A stretch of 14,040 bases of DNA, from the NCBI GenBank assembly GCA_937890875.1, contig CALAEB010000303.1:1-14040 (forward strand). The letters are read 5' to 3'. Origin of the DNA: an uncultured Anaerolineaceae bacterium. GTDB taxonomy: Bacteria; Chloroflexota; Anaerolineae; Anaerolineales; Anaerolineaceae. The notes under the pieces were generated by a model, which saw nothing but the letters and a program-made list of their open reading frames with translations, was not told where the DNA came from and ran no database searches. Positions 1,157 to 14,040 of this stretch are shown here, piece by piece (position 1 is the stretch's first letter; the number at the start of each line of letters is the position of its first letter). The position numbers and the translations under genes were made by a program.

Positions 1157-1653
1157 GCTTCAAAGGCAGGTTAGTCCATTTCGAGATGCAATAGGTGGTA
1201 TTGCGCTGAGCACCATACTCAAGCTCAAGGATGACCGAGTTTCGTTATCGGTTTTGCGTCGCCTTTTCGCTGTGCACCGATATGACGATGTCCGGTGGCT
1301 CCTTTCGGACGCGGGCAAAAGTGGATCCTTATCCGCCAAAAGGAATGAATGAGACTTTCTTAGGCTACTATGTCGGAGAAGGTGATCCAAGGTATCTCTA
1401 TGTCTCTCCGCTGTTTGGCGATTTATCCGGTTTGCCGCCGCTTATGGTCCAGGTAGGTGATAATGAAATGCTCCGTGATGATTCGATGATGTTTGCAGAG
1501 AAGGCAAAATCGGCGGGCGTGCCCGTTCAGATGAAGGTATGGCAGGGAATGTTTCATTGTTTTCCGCTACCTGCGCCGCTGTTCGCCGAGGCGACGGAAG
1601 CAATGAACGAGGTGGCTGCATTTATTCATCAGCAGATCCAATGGAATAATTAA
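1153..1653 (+). pseudogene. Alpha/beta hydrolase (hormone-sensitive lipase-like) remnant, deleted and frameshifted
   Basis: The C-terminal part reads clearly as an alpha/beta hydrolase-3 esterase: TDMTMSGGSF, then YVSPLFGDLSGLPPLMVQVG, then DNEMLRDD, and GMFHCFPL near the end. The acid (Asp of GDNEMLRDD) and the His of GMFH are kept. The start ATG at 1153 overlaps the preceding stop and gives MSFKGRLVHFEMQ, an N-terminus of the kind such esterases have, but a stop follows after 13 codons. Homology resumes in another frame at RDAIGGIALSTILKLKDD, which aligns with the nucleophile elbow GDSAGG-LAL but lacks its Ser. A further shift near 1245-1258 leads into the C-terminal frame. Roughly 130-150 codons that would carry the oxyanion-hole HGGG region are missing. 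It cannot make an active esterase. Confidence 0.8.
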
Positions 1654-1796: not shown

Positions 1797-2171
1797 TCAA
1801 CTGCCAAAACTGAATCTCATCAGGATCAGGAGCGTGACCGCTGACAGGCAAAGCAAAACGCCGTACTGGATTTCCCAGTACGGCATCGCTTCATTTTCCA
1901 AATAGATCGCTGTGAGTTCCGGGCGCGTAAACGTCAAAACCAGCACGTTGTCATCAATGCGATAAATCAGCAGCCAATCCGGCAGAATGTGACATTCCCG
2001 ATGCCCTATCCAATTCCCGGACAGGGTGTGGTCGCGGTTCGTTCCCGGAAGCAGCTCACGCTTGGCAAGCAGGCGAATGATATTGTCCAGCAAATTGATA
2101 TTTTGTCCGCCTTTCATCGCCAGCTTGTAGTCCTTCTTAAATTGGGATGTCCAAACAACATCCAGTTTCAT
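1797..2171 (-). pseudogene. YafQ/RelE-type mRNA interferase toxin, C-terminal frameshift
   Basis: Residues 1-83 follow the YafQ-type RelE toxins (ribosome-dependent endoribonucleases). They include QFKKDYKLAMKGG, NRDH (His48), the LSGNW motif, RECH (His61) and PDWLLIYR (Asp65). After LTFTR the current frame runs into an unrelated, hydrophobic tail up to 1797. A different frame of the same bases reads GTHSDLFGK and stops at 1891-1893, which is the canonical end of the family. One base is therefore missing at about 1919-1925 (cgc-cc-gga where cgc-ncc-gga is expected). This removes the C-terminal His and Phe needed for catalysis in E. coli YafQ. A terminator lies just after the ancestral stop and inside the present tail. 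The start overlaps the antitoxin stop by four bases (ATGA). The present product is probably inactive, if the base loss is real. Confidence 0.82.
1860..1884 (-). terminator. Intrinsic terminator of the toxin-antitoxin operon
   Basis: GCCGTACTGG (1860-1869) and CCAGTACGGC (1875-1884) form a perfect 10-bp stem with a 5-base loop. On the minus strand it is followed by GTTTTGCTTT. It starts only seven bases after the ancestral toxin stop (1891-1893), which independently supports that stop as the original gene end. Confidence 0.7.
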
Positions 2172-2446
2172 TTTTTAAGCTCCCTCAACGTTTCCTCTAC
2201 ATTGCTGTAGTGTTTTGTATTCGGGTCTTTCGCAATCCTCTCTGCTTCCTGCAGAGCTGCAATTGTTTCCGCATTGAGCTGATTAAGCGAAATTTCAAAG
2301 GGAATCCGGCCTTCCCGAAGCGATTGACGGACAAAAATGTTGAACGCCGTGGAGAGGTTCATCCCTAATTCGTTAAACAGCGCGTCGGCCTGCGTTTTCA
2401 GGTCGGCATCCATGCGAATGCTGATATTGGTAGTAGAGCCAGCCAT
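2168..2446 (-). CDS. RelB/DinJ family type II antitoxin
   Basis: This 92-residue protein opens with TTNISIRMDADLKTQADALF, the ribbon-helix-helix DNA-binding motif of RelB/DinJ antitoxins. GMNLSTAFNIFVRQSLREGRIPFEI follows, which is the typical continuation of this family. The acidic, helical C-terminus would wrap the toxin. The ATG at 2446 is chosen because AAGGAG lies about eight bases upstream and the family consensus begins there; a longer in-frame extension to 2515 would run through the promoter. The gene overlaps the toxin start by four bases. Antitoxins of this type repress their own operon, alone or with the toxin. If the toxin is inactive, this gene would persist as an orphan regulator or a neutraliser of related toxins. 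Confidence 0.92.
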   Translation of the reverse strand: MAGSTTNISIRMDADLKTQADALFNELGMNLSTAFNIFVRQSLREGRIPFEISLNQLNAETIAALQEAERIAKDPNTKHYSNVEETLRELKK

Positions 2447-2476
2447 ACAATCATCTCCTTTCGTACTCATACTTAT

Positions 2477-2505
2477 ATTATATGCCGTTTGCACGAAAAA
2501 CACAA
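2477..2505 (-). promoter_or_regulatory. Promoter of the toxin-antitoxin operon
   Basis: On the minus strand TTGTGT (2505-2500) is followed by a 17-base spacer and a perfect TATAAT (2482-2477). The antitoxin start is about 30 bases further on, with AAGGAG in between. The direct repeats at 2491-2521 overlap its spacer and upstream side. Confidence 0.65.
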
Positions 2506-2521
2506 CACAACGCACGAAAAA
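2491..2521. repeat. Direct repeat pair at the antitoxin promoter
   Basis: GCACGAAAAA occurs at 2491-2500 and again at 2512-2521. The copies are 21 bases apart, close to two helical turns, and flank the -35 box. The same-face spacing suits a ribbon-helix-helix antitoxin operator. The binding role is an inference. Confidence 0.4.
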
Positions 2522-9894: not shown

Positions 9895-10923
9895 ATGGAA
9901 GTATCCAAAACACGGTTGCTCAACCTGACGAAAAATTTTATCGCGACCCGAATCCGGTCGGATATCAGCATTCAGTGTATTTATCTGACCGGATCCATGT
10001 TGGGAGAAACCCCTTTTCTGAACGGATCCACCGATGTTGATCTGGTATTTGTGCACGAAGGAGAAGAAACGCAATACCGCGAGATCATCAGCGTGTCACC
10101 GGAGATCACTTTTGATATCCATCATTTGAATCAAAGCACCTTTTCGCCTCCCCGCAAATTGCGGTTTGATCCGTGGATCGGATCTTCCATTTGCTTTGAC
10201 CCGGTCGTTCTGTTCGGAAAAGGACATTGGTTCGAATTTACGCAAGCGTCCATTGAGGCGAATTTTTTCCTTCCCGAAAATGTTTATCAGCGGGCATATC
10301 AATTCAATAATCAAGCCAGAAATGCGTGGATACAACTCCGGAATGAAACGAATCAAACTGAAAGCGCATATGCCCAACAATACGTCAAAATTCTTGAAGA
10401 TGCATCCAACGCGATCGCCTGCCTGCGCTTTCATCCGATGACAGACCGGACTTTCATGCAGAAATTCAGCGAGATAGCCAACGCTATTAATCACCCAGAA
10501 CTGCCCGGAGAATTATACGGGCTGATCCTGGGAGCAACCGATCCTGCGCCTTTCTTTGATTATTATTTCAACGCCTGGAAACATTACTTTGCATATTTAG
10601 GAAAAAGCCCGCTGGTCCGGAAATATCCGCAGTATGATTCGGACCGGCTGCTGTACTACACCAATCCAGTGGAGTTTTTCTGGAAAGACCATATTCCTTC
10701 GGCGCTGTGGATCATGCTGAAAACCTGGAGCCGGATAACCGACTGTCTTCAGCTGGACGGAAACGAGTTTTTCCACTCCTTTTGTTCAATTCTAGAAATA
10801 ACTCCGGATCACAAAAAGCAGCGGGCAAATCAAGTGGAGAATTATCTGAACGCAGTTGAGGCATGCCTGATCGGTTGGGGAAGGAGCCAGGGACTGGAAG
10901 ACAAGTCGGATGTCATTCTGTAA
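9895..10923 (+). CDS. Nucleotidyltransferase-fold protein
   Basis: In this 342-residue protein the N-terminal domain carries the polymerase-beta nucleotidyltransferase signature. Gly-Ser (33-34, in YLTGSMLGE) is followed by the metal-binding pair Asp47 and Asp49 in STDVDLVFVH. A third acidic residue, Asp74, lies in ITFDIHHL. All three carboxylates expected for activity are present. The remaining 250 residues are mainly helical, with no motif I recognise, as in aminoglycoside-nucleotidyltransferase-like proteins of unknown substrate. There is no membrane segment, so it is cytoplasmic. The RBS is weak: AGGAG lies 18 bases before the ATG, near the pepF stop, so translation may depend on coupling to pepF. 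An intrinsic terminator begins at its stop codon. The substrate is unknown. Confidence 0.8.
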   Translation: MEVSKTRLLNLTKNFIATRIRSDISIQCIYLTGSMLGETPFLNGSTDVDLVFVHEGEETQYREIISVSPEITFDIHHLNQSTFSPPRKLRFDPWIGSSICFDPVVLFGKGHWFEFTQASIEANFFLPENVYQRAYQFNNQARNAWIQLRNETNQTESAYAQQYVKILEDASNAIACLRFHPMTDRTFMQKFSEIANAINHPELPGELYGLILGATDPAPFFDYYFNAWKHYFAYLGKSPLVRKYPQYDSDRLLYYTNPVEFFWKDHIPSALWIMLKTWSRITDCLQLDGNEFFHSFCSILEITPDHKKQRANQVENYLNAVEACLIGWGRSQGLEDKSDVIL

Positions 10924-10959
10924 AAAAGTATCCACATTTTTTTGTGGATACTTTTTTTA
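10924..10959 (+). terminator. Intrinsic terminator of the pepF unit, built from head-to-head DnaA-like boxes
   Basis: AAAAGTATCCACA (10924-10936) and TGTGGATACTTTT (10943-10955) form a perfect 13-bp stem over a T6 loop, followed by more T. It starts directly after the stop codon at 10921-10923. Each arm contains GTATCCACA, one base away from the DnaA box TTATCCACA. Confidence 0.85.
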
Positions 10960-11123
10960 TGGTCTGTTGAAAACCGTTCTTTTTCAAAAAACTGCCCACT
11001 ATCCACAATTTATAAAAAATAAGCTTTTCTTTTCCACAACTGCTCAACAGAGAGATTTGTTTAAGCCTGGCCAAAAATACGAGGCGGTGGTTCTTTTCTG
11101 AATACTTTTCCACATTATCCACA
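10928..11123. promoter_or_regulatory. Cluster of six DnaA-box-like 9-mers (candidate origin or DnaA-binding locus)
   Basis: On the plus strand there are GTATCCACA (10928-10936), CTATCCACA (10999-11007), TTTTCCACA (11030-11038), TTTTCCACA (11106-11114) and a perfect TTATCCACA (11115-11123). On the minus strand there is GTATCCACA (10951-10943). The last two are directly adjacent and are followed by GGG and AT-rich DNA; a second AT-rich stretch lies at 11006-11033. Nearly all the interval from 10924 to 11204 lacks a gene. A dense set of same-strand boxes next to AT-rich DNA is the anatomy of a bacterial origin. However, dnaA and dnaN are not in the window, and the flanking genes (pepF unit and ferredoxin) both run towards this region, which is unusual for an origin. 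A DnaA-titrating or regulatory site is an alternative. Confidence 0.6.
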
Positions 11124-11204
11124 GGGTATACTATGAAGAAGAAAGCTATTAATCAAACCTGTATTTTATATCAAATCAACATTGGACGTCCATGGAACGA
11201 ATAT

Positions 11205-11247
11205 AAAAAAGGAGGACCGTTATAAAAAATAACAGCCCTCCTTTTTT
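11205..11247. terminator. Bidirectional intrinsic terminator
   Basis: AAAAAAGGAGG (11205-11215) pairs with CCTCCTTTTTT (11237-11247), and GTTAT (11219-11223) pairs with ATAAC (11229-11233) above a small internal loop. Both strands end in six T. It lies 16 bases beyond the ferredoxin stop on the minus strand and faces the pepF unit on the other side, so it probably serves mainly the ferredoxin gene. Confidence 0.82.
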
Positions 11248-11262
11248 GTGAATCGCCAGGAA

Positions 11263-11436
11263 TCAGGCCTGGACCGGTGCGCCGACCGGGCAAACATTCG
11301 CACAGTTGCCACAATCGATACACAAATCCGGGTTGATTTCCATATAGCCATCTGCCTCTGTGATTGCCTCAACAGGGCATTCAGATGCACAAGCACCACA
11401 ATTAATACATTCTTCTGCAATAATTTTGTACGCCAT
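11263..11436 (-). CDS. 2[4Fe-4S] ferredoxin, clostridial type
   Basis: This 57-residue protein starts MAYKIIAEEC. It has two complete cluster motifs, Cys10-x2-Cys13-x2-Cys16-x3-Cys20-Pro and Cys39-x2-Cys42-x2-Cys45-x3-Cys49-Pro. The gene is short but unmistakable; a longer open frame in another register of the same strand is only its shadow. Such ferredoxins are soluble low-potential electron carriers for pyruvate:ferredoxin oxidoreductase, hydrogenases and similar anaerobic enzymes. An AGGAG motif (11449-11453) lies twelve bases upstream, with a good promoter before it and a strong terminator after it, so it is monocistronic. It points to an anaerobic lifestyle. Confidence 0.95.
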   Translation of the reverse strand: MAYKIIAEECINCGACASECPVEAITEADGYMEINPDLCIDCGNCANVCPVGAPVQA

Positions 11437-11763: not shown

Positions 11764-12273
11764 TCAGTTCGCAATAATTTTGACTGTGATTAATTTTCCT
11801 GCAGGTGTGCTAAAACGTGGATCTCGGACCGGTATCTTTAAAACATTTTCAAAACCCGAGGTGACTTCACCAAATACGGTGTGTTTTCCATCAAGCCATG
11901 GTGTGGGCACGTGTGTAATAAAGAATTGAGATCCGTTGGTGTTGGGACCAGCGTTTGCCATTGAGAGAATGCCCGGTTTTGAGTGCTTTAAATCTTTATG
12001 GAATTCATCTTTGAATTGGTATCCCGGACCTCCGCTTCCTGTTCCGGTAGGATCTCCGCCTTGGGCCATAAAGTCCTGGATGACCCGATGAAAAATTGTG
12101 TCGTTATAAAAGCCTTCATTCGCAAGGAAAACAAAGTTATTTACTGTGTTGGGCACTTCCGCCGCAAAAAGTTTCACTTCAAAATTCCCGGCATCCGTTT
12201 CAAAAAGGGCTGTATAACTCTTTTTTAGATCCAAGGTAAAATCCGGTTTCTGGTTCCATGTTTTGCTTGTCAT
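11764..12273 (-). CDS. Cyclophilin-type peptidyl-prolyl cis-trans isomerase
   Basis: This 169-residue protein has a complete cyclophilin core: [20 protein letters not shown], the catalytic FHRVI (Arg63), [36 protein letters not shown] and [12 protein letters not shown] with the binding-pocket Trp126 and His131. It lacks a signal peptide or lipobox, so it is a cytoplasmic folding catalyst that accelerates proline isomerisation. ATG 12273 is chosen because AAAGGA sits six bases upstream; the in-frame ATG at 12288 would overlap that RBS. The gene is divergent from the ABC-F gene, and the intergenic region between them holds the parS site. A terminator lies about 55 bases after its stop. Confidence 0.95.
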
Positions 12274-12313: not shown

Positions 12314-12331
12314 ATGTTTCACGTGAAACAT
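12314..12331. promoter_or_regulatory. parS: Perfect parS centromere site (ParB/Spo0J binding)
   Basis: ATGTTTCACGTGAAACAT is an 18-bp perfect palindrome whose 16-bp core TGTTTCACGTGAAACA is the universal chromosomal parS consensus, with no mismatch. It lies in the divergent intergenic space between the isomerase and the ABC-F gene. ParB loads here, spreads as a CTP clamp and recruits SMC for origin segregation. In most bacteria parS sites lie in the origin-proximal part of the chromosome. Neither parA nor parB is in the window. Confidence 0.93.
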
Positions 12332-12338
12332 TTCAAGG

Positions 12339-12347
12339 TGGTATACT
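12339..12347 (+). promoter_or_regulatory. Extended -10 promoter for the ABC-F gene, next to parS
   Basis: TGG followed by TATACT (12342-12347) fits an extended -10 element, 24 bases before the ATG at 12371. A -35 contact at the usual distance would fall at 12319-12324, inside parS. ParB binding could thus interfere with transcription of this gene. Confidence 0.5.
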
Positions 12348-12370: not shown

Positions 12371-13411
12371 ATGTCACTGATAACAGCGAATAACATTTCA
12401 AAATCTTTTGGGGATGACGATATCTTTTCCAGTGTGTCGCTGTCCGTTCCGCAAAAAGCCCGAATCGGTTTTGTCGGCCCGAACGGCAGTGGAAAAACAA
12501 CCTTGCTTCGGATCCTGCTCGGTTATGAGACGGTTGATTCCGGCACTGTTCAAAGAGCCAAAAATTTGCAGATTGGTTATCTTCCGCAACAGCTCCGGAT
12601 CGAATTTTCACGTACGCCGAAAGAAGAATGCTTGTCTGTATTTTCCGATCTTTATCTGATCCAGGAAAAAATGATCTCGCTGGAGAATAAAATGGGGACA
12701 GATCCGGATCCGGAAGCGCTTTTGGCTGAATATGGAAAACTGCAGGACCTTTTTGAGGAAAAGGGCGGCTATCAATTTGAAACTAAAGTAAAACAGGTGC
12801 TGGAAGGGCTTGGACTCAAAAACGGAGAAGAGAACCGGCCCTGGCAGCAATTATCCGGCGGTCAACGGACGCGGGCTTATCTTGCGAAAGTGCTGTTGTC
12901 TGATCCCGATCTGCTGTTCCTGGATGAACCGACAAACCATCTGGATATTTATGCGATTGAATGGCTGGAAGCCTTTCTGAAGGATTTTAACGGCGCTGTG
13001 CTGATGGTTTCTCATGACCGGTATTTCCTTGATCAAACGGTGAATACGATCTGGGACCTATCGCCGGTTTTTGAAATCTATCATGGAAACTACAGCGCTT
13101 ATCTGATGCAAAGGGAAGCCCGGTATGAAAGGCAGCTCGCCGAGTTTGAAGCGCAGCAGGCCTTTATCGAAAAGGAAGAGTCCTATATCCGGAAAAACAT
13201 TGAAGGCCAAAATACCCGGCAGGCTCAAGGAAGAAGGACCCGCCTTGAACGAATGCTGCGGGAATCGAAAATTACTAAACCGCGGAAAGAAAAAACGTTC
13301 CATTTGCGGCTGAAGCGCGCTCCGGCGATCAGGTTCTGCGGACGAAAGATGTCCGGATCGGTTACCAGGATGACAAAAAAACGCTGTTTACACTGCCGGA
13401 TATCCGCTTAA
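12371..13411 (+). pseudogene. ABC-F family ATPase, 5' part (frameshifted gene)
   Basis: This encodes the first ATPase domain of an ABC-F protein (Uup/EttA/antibiotic-protection class): Walker A GPNGSGKTT at about 36-44, signature LSGGQRTRAYLAKVLL, Walker B DLLFLDEPTNHLD and SHDRYFLD. The interdomain linker follows, with YERQLAEFEAQQAFIEKEES and an Arg-rich RQAQGRRTRLERM stretch. There are no membrane segments, so it would work on ribosomes. After TFHLRLK (about 13310-13315) the frame leaves the family and ends at 13411, while the second ATPase domain continues in another frame. A single missing G (AAGGCG read as AAGCG) explains it. The start at 12371 is chosen by homology; in-frame codons further upstream merely translate parS. 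The RBS is weak (AGGAA, about 13 bases away). Unless the break is a sequence error, only a half-protein is made. Confidence 0.88.
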
Positions 13412-14040
13412 CCCGTGGTGAATGCGCCGCGGTGATCGGACCGAATGGTGGCGGGAAAACAACCCTGATCAAAACGATCCTGGGGCAGCTGCCGCCGCTG
13501 TCCGGAGAAGTTACACTTGGCGCGAATTTAAAAATCGGTTATTTTGCCCAGGCACACGAGGGATTAAATCCGGATTCCACTCTGATCGATGAGATCAGTG
13601 CGGTTGCACCGGCCATGCTGCCTGCGGACATCCGGAATTATCTGGCCCGATTCCATTTTACCGGTGACGACGTGTATAAAACGGTGCGTGTTTTGTCCGG
13701 AGGTGAACGGGGACGGCTCGCGCTGGCTGTGCTGGGATTGCAGGGCGCAAATCTTTTGCTGCTGGATGAACCGATGAATCATCTGGATATTGGATCCCAG
13801 GAAGGGCTCCAGGCGGTGCTGAAAGACTTTAGCGGTACAATCATATTGGTGTCTCATGATCGCTTTTTGATCGATGGCATCGCTACCCAGATCTGGGAAG
13901 TAATTCCTGAACGAAAAGAGATGGTTTTTTATCCGGGAACTTACAGCCAGTATAAAGAATGGAAAAAAAACGTCAATGGGCCATCGGATTTAAAAAAAGA
14001 CAAAATCATCTCACAGCCTGCCAAAAATGATGACTCTGAG
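13315..14040 (+). pseudogene. ABC-F family ATPase, 3' part (other frame, truncated by window end)
   Basis: Starting at ARSGDQVLRTKDVRIGY, this frame carries the second ATPase domain of the gene that begins at 12371. It has Walker A GPNGGGKTT, KIGYFAQAHEGLNPDSTLID, signature LSGGERGRLALAVLGL, Walker B NLLLLDEPMNHLD (Met where Thr is usual) and SHDRFLID. A charged, Lys-rich C-terminal extension begins at about YKEWKKN and is still open at the last base. No RBS or natural start precedes it; the first possible internal start, GTG 13432, would cut into the domain. Read together with the 5' part, it restores a normal two-domain ABC-F protein. Confidence 0.88.

What the first reader, a model, noticed from the sequence alone, without database searches (positions are those of the whole stretch)
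12314..12331. Perfect parS site in a divergent intergenic region
The 16-bp core matches the conserved ParB-binding consensus without mismatch and extends to an 18-bp palindrome. It marks this window as probably lying in the origin-proximal domain of a chromosome (or on a large replicon with a chromosomal-type ParABS). That is unexpected, given that the only neighbours are a cyclophilin and an ABC-F gene.
Basis: partly seen in the sequence, partly recalled or inferred. Interest (0 to 1): 0.72.

Follow-up and report, generated by a model that had tools for sequence, protein, structure and literature searches.

The report
Chromosome centromere site beside replication origin
The window carries a perfect bacterial centromere sequence (parS) about one kilobase from what looks like the chromosome's replication origin, an ordinary pairing, although in two close relatives the genes for the proteins that should act on it lie near the opposite end of the chromosome.

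Summary
Observation confirmed: TGTTTCACGTGAAACA lies at 12315-12330 inside an 18-bp palindrome. It is the only copy with at most one mismatch in the 80.75%-complete assembly; 0.0008 are expected by base composition. The genome has one parAB pair, on another contig.

ABC-F, parS, cyclophilin and a nucleotidyltransferase-like gene keep this order in 10 of 13 parS-bearing genomes of the genus, probably Flexilinea. In single-contig relative G003 the locus is the GC-skew minimum. So the neighbours are normal origin neighbours here.

The unusual part is parAB. In G003 it is 1.34 Mb from parS and about 50 kb from the skew maximum, so near the terminus; in G009 it is roughly 0.13-0.16 Mb from the maximum. 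In 31 of 31 multi-contig parS-bearing genomes of the order, parS and parB lie on different contigs, which shows separation only.

The parts
12315..12330 (.). parS, exact consensus TGTTTCACGTGAAACA; palindrome extends to 12314-12331
   Evidence: same place in the genus
10924..11215 (.). probable oriC: intergenic, 34% GC against 48% for the window, six DnaA-box-like 9-mers
   Evidence: aligned relatives; skew minimum in relative G003
10928..10951 (.). two inverted DnaA-box-like 9-mers (GTATCCACA at 10928 + and 10943 -) inside a perfect inverted repeat 10922-10936/10943-10957 that also looks like the terminator of the upstream gene
10999..11038 (+). DnaA-box-like CTATCCACA (10999) and TTTTCCACA (11030)
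11106..11123 (+). tandem DnaA boxes TTTTCCACA-TTATCCACA, the second one perfect; a tandem pair aligns here in relatives
9895..10923 (+). nucleotidyltransferase-like protein (name from a recalled GS..DxD motif; no Pfam or NCBIfam match and no significant solved-structure match); its 3' end borders the DnaA-box array across the family
11263..11436 (-). ferredoxin, 57 aa, two 4Fe-4S motifs; also between cyclophilin and the box region in six relatives
11764..12273 (-). cyclophilin-type peptidyl-prolyl isomerase
12339..12347 (+). possible extended -10 element TGGTATACT before ABC-F; TGNTATACT in 8 of 8 loci aligned (8 of 13 available); in the window the -35 place would fall inside parS
   Evidence: the promoter scan alone is at chance level (1 found, shuffles 0.5)
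12371..13411 (+). ABC-F ATPase, first part; frame breaks after 13411
13432..14040 (+). ABC-F ATPase, second part in another frame, runs to the contig end

Best explanation
The 16-mer is the chromosomal centromere parS of a Flexilinea-like bacterium, 1.2-1.4 kb from the DnaA-box cluster of its probable replication origin oriC (window 10924-11215). The single ParB found in the assembly, encoded beside parA on another contig, loads at parS and spreads over neighbouring DNA including oriC; ParA moves the complex so that sister origins separate first. Shown here: the sequence, its copy number, its conserved place, the DnaA-box cluster, the skew minimum in a relative, and a parAB pair. Inferred from established knowledge of ParABS: binding, spreading, ParA-driven movement and DnaA-dependent initiation.
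For: Exact consensus, single copy. One parAB pair; ParB has ParB_N, HTH_ParB and ParB_C and R and G at the positions of R173 and G201. ABC-F flanks parS in 13 of 13 parS-bearing genus genomes. Window: 7 boxes with at most one mismatch in 500 bp, 0 of 300 shuffles reach this; the only cluster of three or more among 76 exact TATCCACA in the assembly. Box arrays lie 3' of the nucleotidyltransferase-like gene in 8 of 8 other genera of the family where that gene was found (no shuffle control). In G003 the skew minimum spans 292.3-296 kb, the only TATCCACA-N(0-40)-TCCACA match is at 295142 and parS is at 296306.
Against: The own assembly has 665 contigs, so only relatives could be placed on a chromosome. 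The window's own GC skew shows no sign change (left +0.028, right +0.041); over 11 genus loci the right exceeds the left in 11, once by only 0.001, and the sign changes in 5 (cluster centres set by hand). Box clusters are weak or absent in G002, G003, G008, G009 and G010 (shuffles reaching the observed: 8, 274, 81, 16 and 14 of 300), and the tandem-box pattern has no match in G009. Two window boxes sit in a terminator-like hairpin. The own ParB reads H and N where the paper lists Q162 and S172 as conserved parS contacts, and K at 184, a residue nearly fixed in Noc; its best NCBIfam score is the Noc model (245.8 bits, below its cut-off of 315), while the general ParB model passes its cut-off (193.8 against 58.45). 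No binding or replication data exist.
Confidence: 0.9

Rival explanations
1. The palindrome is mainly a transcriptional operator for the divergent cyclophilin and ABC-F genes, bound by ParB or another regulator.
For: It lies between divergent starts and, in the window, over the -35 place of a promoter-like site whose -10 is invariant in 8 of 8 aligned loci.
Against: The distance from parS to that -10 is not conserved: close in five rows, further upstream in G012, G005 and G013. In G002 parS persists although no cyclophilin was found beside it. In other genera the adjacent genes differ: ABC-2 exporter ATPases in G015, G017, G020 and G021, PPDK-domain proteins in G018 and G024, an RNA cyclase in G023. 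Yet within the family parS stays 4-27 kb from a DnaA-box array in the 5 of 9 other-genus loci that have both on one contig (G015, G018, G019, G021, G023).
Confidence: 0.05
2. The contig belongs to a large plasmid or chromid with its own chromosomal-type ParABS.
For: The assembly is fragmented and no parAB is on this contig.
Against: Only one ParB is found in the assembly and it is elsewhere. The same locus lies on the 2.945-Mb single contig of G003, at its skew minimum.
Confidence: 0.02
3. The DnaA-box cluster is not the origin but a DnaA titration site or chance boxes in terminator hairpins; parS is origin-near but the true oriC is elsewhere nearby.
For: Two boxes are in a hairpin; boxes are poor in several relatives.
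Against: Only cluster of its kind in the own assembly; at the skew minimum in G003; conserved position relative to the nucleotidyltransferase-like gene.
Confidence: 0.1
4. The own ParB is a Noc-like protein with altered specificity and the 16-mer is a relic.
For: K at position 184; best NCBIfam score is the Noc model, though below its cut-off.
Against: R and G at the two switching positions, which the paper calls absolutely conserved in ParB orthologs; parA lies beside it; parS is kept exact in 12 other genomes of the genus.
Confidence: 0.03

Closest known systems
Chromosomal parS of the Spo0J/ParB family (consensus recalled; reviews PMC7333895 and PMC7022226, passages seen)
   Same: Exact consensus, few copies, beside the origin, a single ParB with R and G at the switching positions
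   Different: In relatives parAB is not near parS; [quoted passage not shown]
Thermus thermophilus chromosomal par (table passage of PMC7022226)
   Same: A single chromosomal parS
   Different: Its parS is the variant TGTTTCCCGTGAAACA; I did not check its gene distances
DnaA-dependent bacterial oriC (general knowledge)
   Same: Intergenic A+T-rich DNA with clustered, partly inverted DnaA boxes
   Different: Not beside dnaA: 90 kb and 164 kb from parS in G003 and G009; own dnaA is on contig C33

Membership tests
chromosomal parS | match to the 16-bp palindromic consensus | tested here: met
chromosomal parS | ParB with parS-type specificity residues in the same genome | tested here: met
   R, T, K, G at 173/179/184/201, aligned by eye to chain 6t1f_A, which I take from recall to be Caulobacter ParB, positions from PMC7383237 passages; but H and N replace the conserved contacts Q162 and S172
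chromosomal parS | origin-proximal location | tested here: met
   Relative G003, less sharply G009; in the own genome only through the oriC candidate beside it
chromosomal parS | bound by ParB and nucleates spreading | not testable with these tools
   needs ChIP-seq or purified protein
[quoted passage not shown]
   In relative G003: parB 1636681 against parS 296306 in 2945494 bp; not testable in the own fragmented assembly
DnaA-dependent oriC | cluster of DnaA boxes in intergenic A+T-rich DNA | tested here: met
DnaA-dependent oriC | at the GC-skew minimum | tested here: inconclusive
   met in relative G003; not decidable in the own 14-kb contig
DnaA-dependent oriC | replication starts there | not testable with these tools
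   needs marker-frequency data

The most novel reading that the evidence does not exclude
In Flexilinea, and perhaps much of Anaerolineales, the partition system is split across the chromosome as a conserved arrangement: the centromere sits beside oriC while parAB sits near the terminus. ParA/ParB gene dosage then rises only as replication ends, which could tie partition-protein supply to completion of the round instead of to its start.
Probability: 0.25. Interest if true: 0.6.

Novelty: new member of a known kind. Interest (0 to 1): 0.4.

Why it matters
It marks a likely oriC-parS pair in a family for which my searches showed no paper on parS (15 of 15 listed) or oriC (12 of 154 listed, none of the 12 holding the word Anaerolineae). 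The conserved neighbours let others find the origin in fragmented metagenome assemblies. The terminus-near parAB in two relatives is an exception to the stated rule that par operons lie in the origin domain, and makes it testable whether that rule reflects need or history.

Tried and rejected
Rfam and tRNA scans of the window: nothing. G035, another family of the order: skew too weak to place origin or terminus; no boxes 3' of its nucleotidyltransferase-like gene; two tandem-box matches near 150 kb suggest an origin about 0.33 Mb from its parS, so tight oriC-parS linkage was not shown there. Naming the nucleotidyltransferase-like protein: no Pfam or NCBIfam match; one solved-structure match at E 0.47. 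Livny 2007, a survey of parS positions, is not held; I saw it only in a reference list.

Corrected on re-check: my ferredoxin query was translated out of frame, so its ferredoxin rows do not count; one search repeats it in frame. One search also left out ABC hits under 40% identity; one search had shown such hits (24-29%) near parS in G015, G017, G020, G021, G028 and G031. I then examined those of G015, G017, G020 and G021: they score best with ABC exporter ATPases, not ABC-F; G028 and G031 were not examined. I lowered the main confidence from 0.92 to 0.90 because the unexpected ParB residues and the Noc score had been left out of my draft.

Full report
Observation. TGTTTCACGTGAAACA is at 12315-12330 and the palindrome extends to 12314-12331. 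Base composition predicts 0.0008 copies in 3.06 Mb. The window is contig C303 of an assembly of 3,056,141 bases in 665 contigs, 80.75% complete. It is the only site there with at most one mismatch. One further place has two mismatches, but at that stringency the backwards control scores equally.

Where it comes from. 

The partner proteins. One HTH_ParB match is in the assembly, on C163, with a ParA gene beside parB on the same strand. Pfam finds ParB_N, HTH_ParB and ParB_C. I aligned it by eye to chain 6t1f_A, from recall Caulobacter ParB, with positions from PMC7383237 (passages). Residues 173, 179, 184 and 201 are R, T, K and G. [quoted passage not shown] Against a textbook match: the listed contacts Q162 and S172 are H and N here, K184 is typical of Noc, and the top NCBIfam score is the Noc model, below its cut-off.

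Conserved place. Of 41 genomes (own plus 40 of the order), 33 have a site with at most one mismatch, 1-5 each, on one contig except in G033; the backwards control has a place in 4 of 41. In the genus 13 of 14 have it; the exception G007 has its cyclophilin at a contig end, so absence cannot be told from a gap. ABC-F flanks parS in 13 of 13 and cyclophilin in 11 of 13; G011's contig ends 0.4 kb past parS, and in G002 no cyclophilin was found there. The nucleotidyltransferase-like gene follows beyond the cyclophilin in 10 of 13. A ferredoxin gene lies between cyclophilin, or parS in G002, and that gene in 7 of 13 (own, G001, G002, G003, G008, G009, G010).

A probable origin in the window. TTATCCACA with one mismatch gave 11 matches where shuffles average 2.7, 0 of 200 reaching 11. 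Six lie at 10928-11123, between the nucleotidyltransferase-like gene and the ferredoxin gene, in DNA of 34% GC. Of 76 exact TATCCACA in the assembly, four fall here within 200 bp; no other contig has three within 500 bp. In ten relatives examined by shuffling, the densest 500 bp lies 0.64-0.98 kb from parS on the cyclophilin side in G001, G004, G005, G006, G013 (5-8 boxes, 0 of 300 shuffles each) and more weakly in G008, G009, G010 (2-3 boxes; 81, 16 and 14 of 300). It does not in G002 (3 boxes, inside the nucleotidyltransferase-like gene; 8 of 300) or G003 (1 box; 274 of 300). Two alignments, of 5 and 4 loci, show part of the boxes in register. One search found the nucleotidyltransferase-like gene in 21 of 23 genomes asked; G014 and G022 were not asked. 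An array of boxes follows it in all 8 other genera of the family among these (G016, G017, G019, G020, G021, G023, G024; G018) and in G012, but not in G035. No shuffle control was run. G015, without that gene, has 12 boxes in 500 bp about 4 kb from its nearest parS-like site.

Skew. Sixty 19-kb stretches of G003 give 26 of 27 positive from 331 to 1,650 kb and 32 of 33 negative elsewhere. Fine sampling puts the minimum at 292.3 kb with a flat floor to about 296 kb, and the maximum at about 1,684-1,687 kb. The only TATCCACA-N(0-40)-TCCACA match in G003 is at 295,142; G009 has none and G035 seven. G003's parS copies are at 296,306 and 296,353, with a two-mismatch site at 275,868. In G009, skew on contig C3 is positive in 14 of 16 stretches up to 1.72 Mb and negative in 6 of 6 from 1.75 Mb on; around parS it goes from negative (3 of 3 stretches up to 65 kb) to positive in 3 of 4 beyond. 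The own window shows no sign change.

parAB is elsewhere. In G003, parB is at 1,636,681, 1.34 Mb from parS and about 50 kb from the skew maximum, with parA beside it. In G009, parB is at C3:1,592,972, roughly 0.13-0.16 Mb from the change of skew, also with parA. In G035 parS and parB are about 1.09 Mb apart. In the other 31 parS-bearing genomes, parS and every ParB hit lie on different contigs, as in 3 of 3 further genomes of the order (G052, G060, G076). This shows separation by at least the contig's reach, not terminus position; many contigs are short. The best case is G023, where parS is 203 kb and 344 kb from the ends of its contig. Of 13 genomes outside the order whose parS places are listed (the list was cut), 5 have parS on the contig of the best ParB match (G058, G082, G090 within about 2 kb; G080 about 50 kb; G096 about 84 kb or more) and 8 do not (G046, G064, G066, G068, G072, G074, G088, G098). 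So both layouts exist in the phylum and separation is not special to this order.

Promoter. TGNTATACT before ABC-F is invariant in the 8 loci aligned, but its distance from parS varies, which argues against parS being primarily an operator. The promoter scan itself is at chance level. In the window ParB could still hinder the ABC-F promoter; this is untested.

Literature. Search listings only: parS+ParB+Chloroflexi (15 of 15 listed), Anaerolineae/oriC/dnaA/GC skew (12 of 154), parAB position (20 of 80, 12 of 40, 12 of 36), Flexilinea (10 of 71). By titles and abstract starts none is about this locus or reports parAB at the terminus; most listed papers were not opened. [quoted passage not shown] PMC7333895 says the same of a single site; PMC6650430 places parAB about 7 kb from an origin marker in Hyphomonas; PMC7383237. 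The library omits most subscription journals.

Verdict. The site is a real chromosomal parS next to a probable oriC: an ordinary centromere in a little-described lineage. The point worth following is where parAB lies.

Noticed in passing
window 13411-13432: The ABC-F gene is in two frames here while G003 has one open frame of 699 aa; assembly error or a broken gene cannot be told.
   Followed up: no
window 1797-2515 (-): RelB-like antitoxin and YafQ-like toxin pair about 8-9 kb from the probable origin.
   Followed up: no
window 9895-10923: Nucleotidyltransferase-like protein without Pfam or NCBIfam match borders the DnaA-box array across the genera examined; it could serve as an origin marker.
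   Followed up: partly
window 10922-10957: A perfect inverted repeat followed by T looks like an intrinsic terminator and at the same time holds two inverted DnaA-box-like sites.
   Followed up: no
G003, G009 and G035: dnaA is not at the origin: 90 kb and 164 kb from parS in G003 and G009, and at 3.07 Mb in G035.
   Followed up: partly
L224, L227, L228, L231 (G017, G020, G021, G015): In four other genera an ABC exporter ATPase of 313-321 aa is the gene next to parS; in G017 and G021 an ABC-2 permease follows it.
   Followed up: partly
G072, G088, G096: Other Chloroflexota carry 22, 16 and 14 sites with at most one mismatch, in G072 spread over many contigs, against 1-3 in this genus.
   Followed up: no
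family f20: G044, G054, G062, G070, G078: Five single-contig genomes of 1.4-1.9 Mb have no parS with at most one mismatch and at best a marginal ParB match.
   Followed up: no
window 1231-1653: An alpha/beta hydrolase ORF matches only the C-terminal half of its Pfam profile.
   Followed up: no
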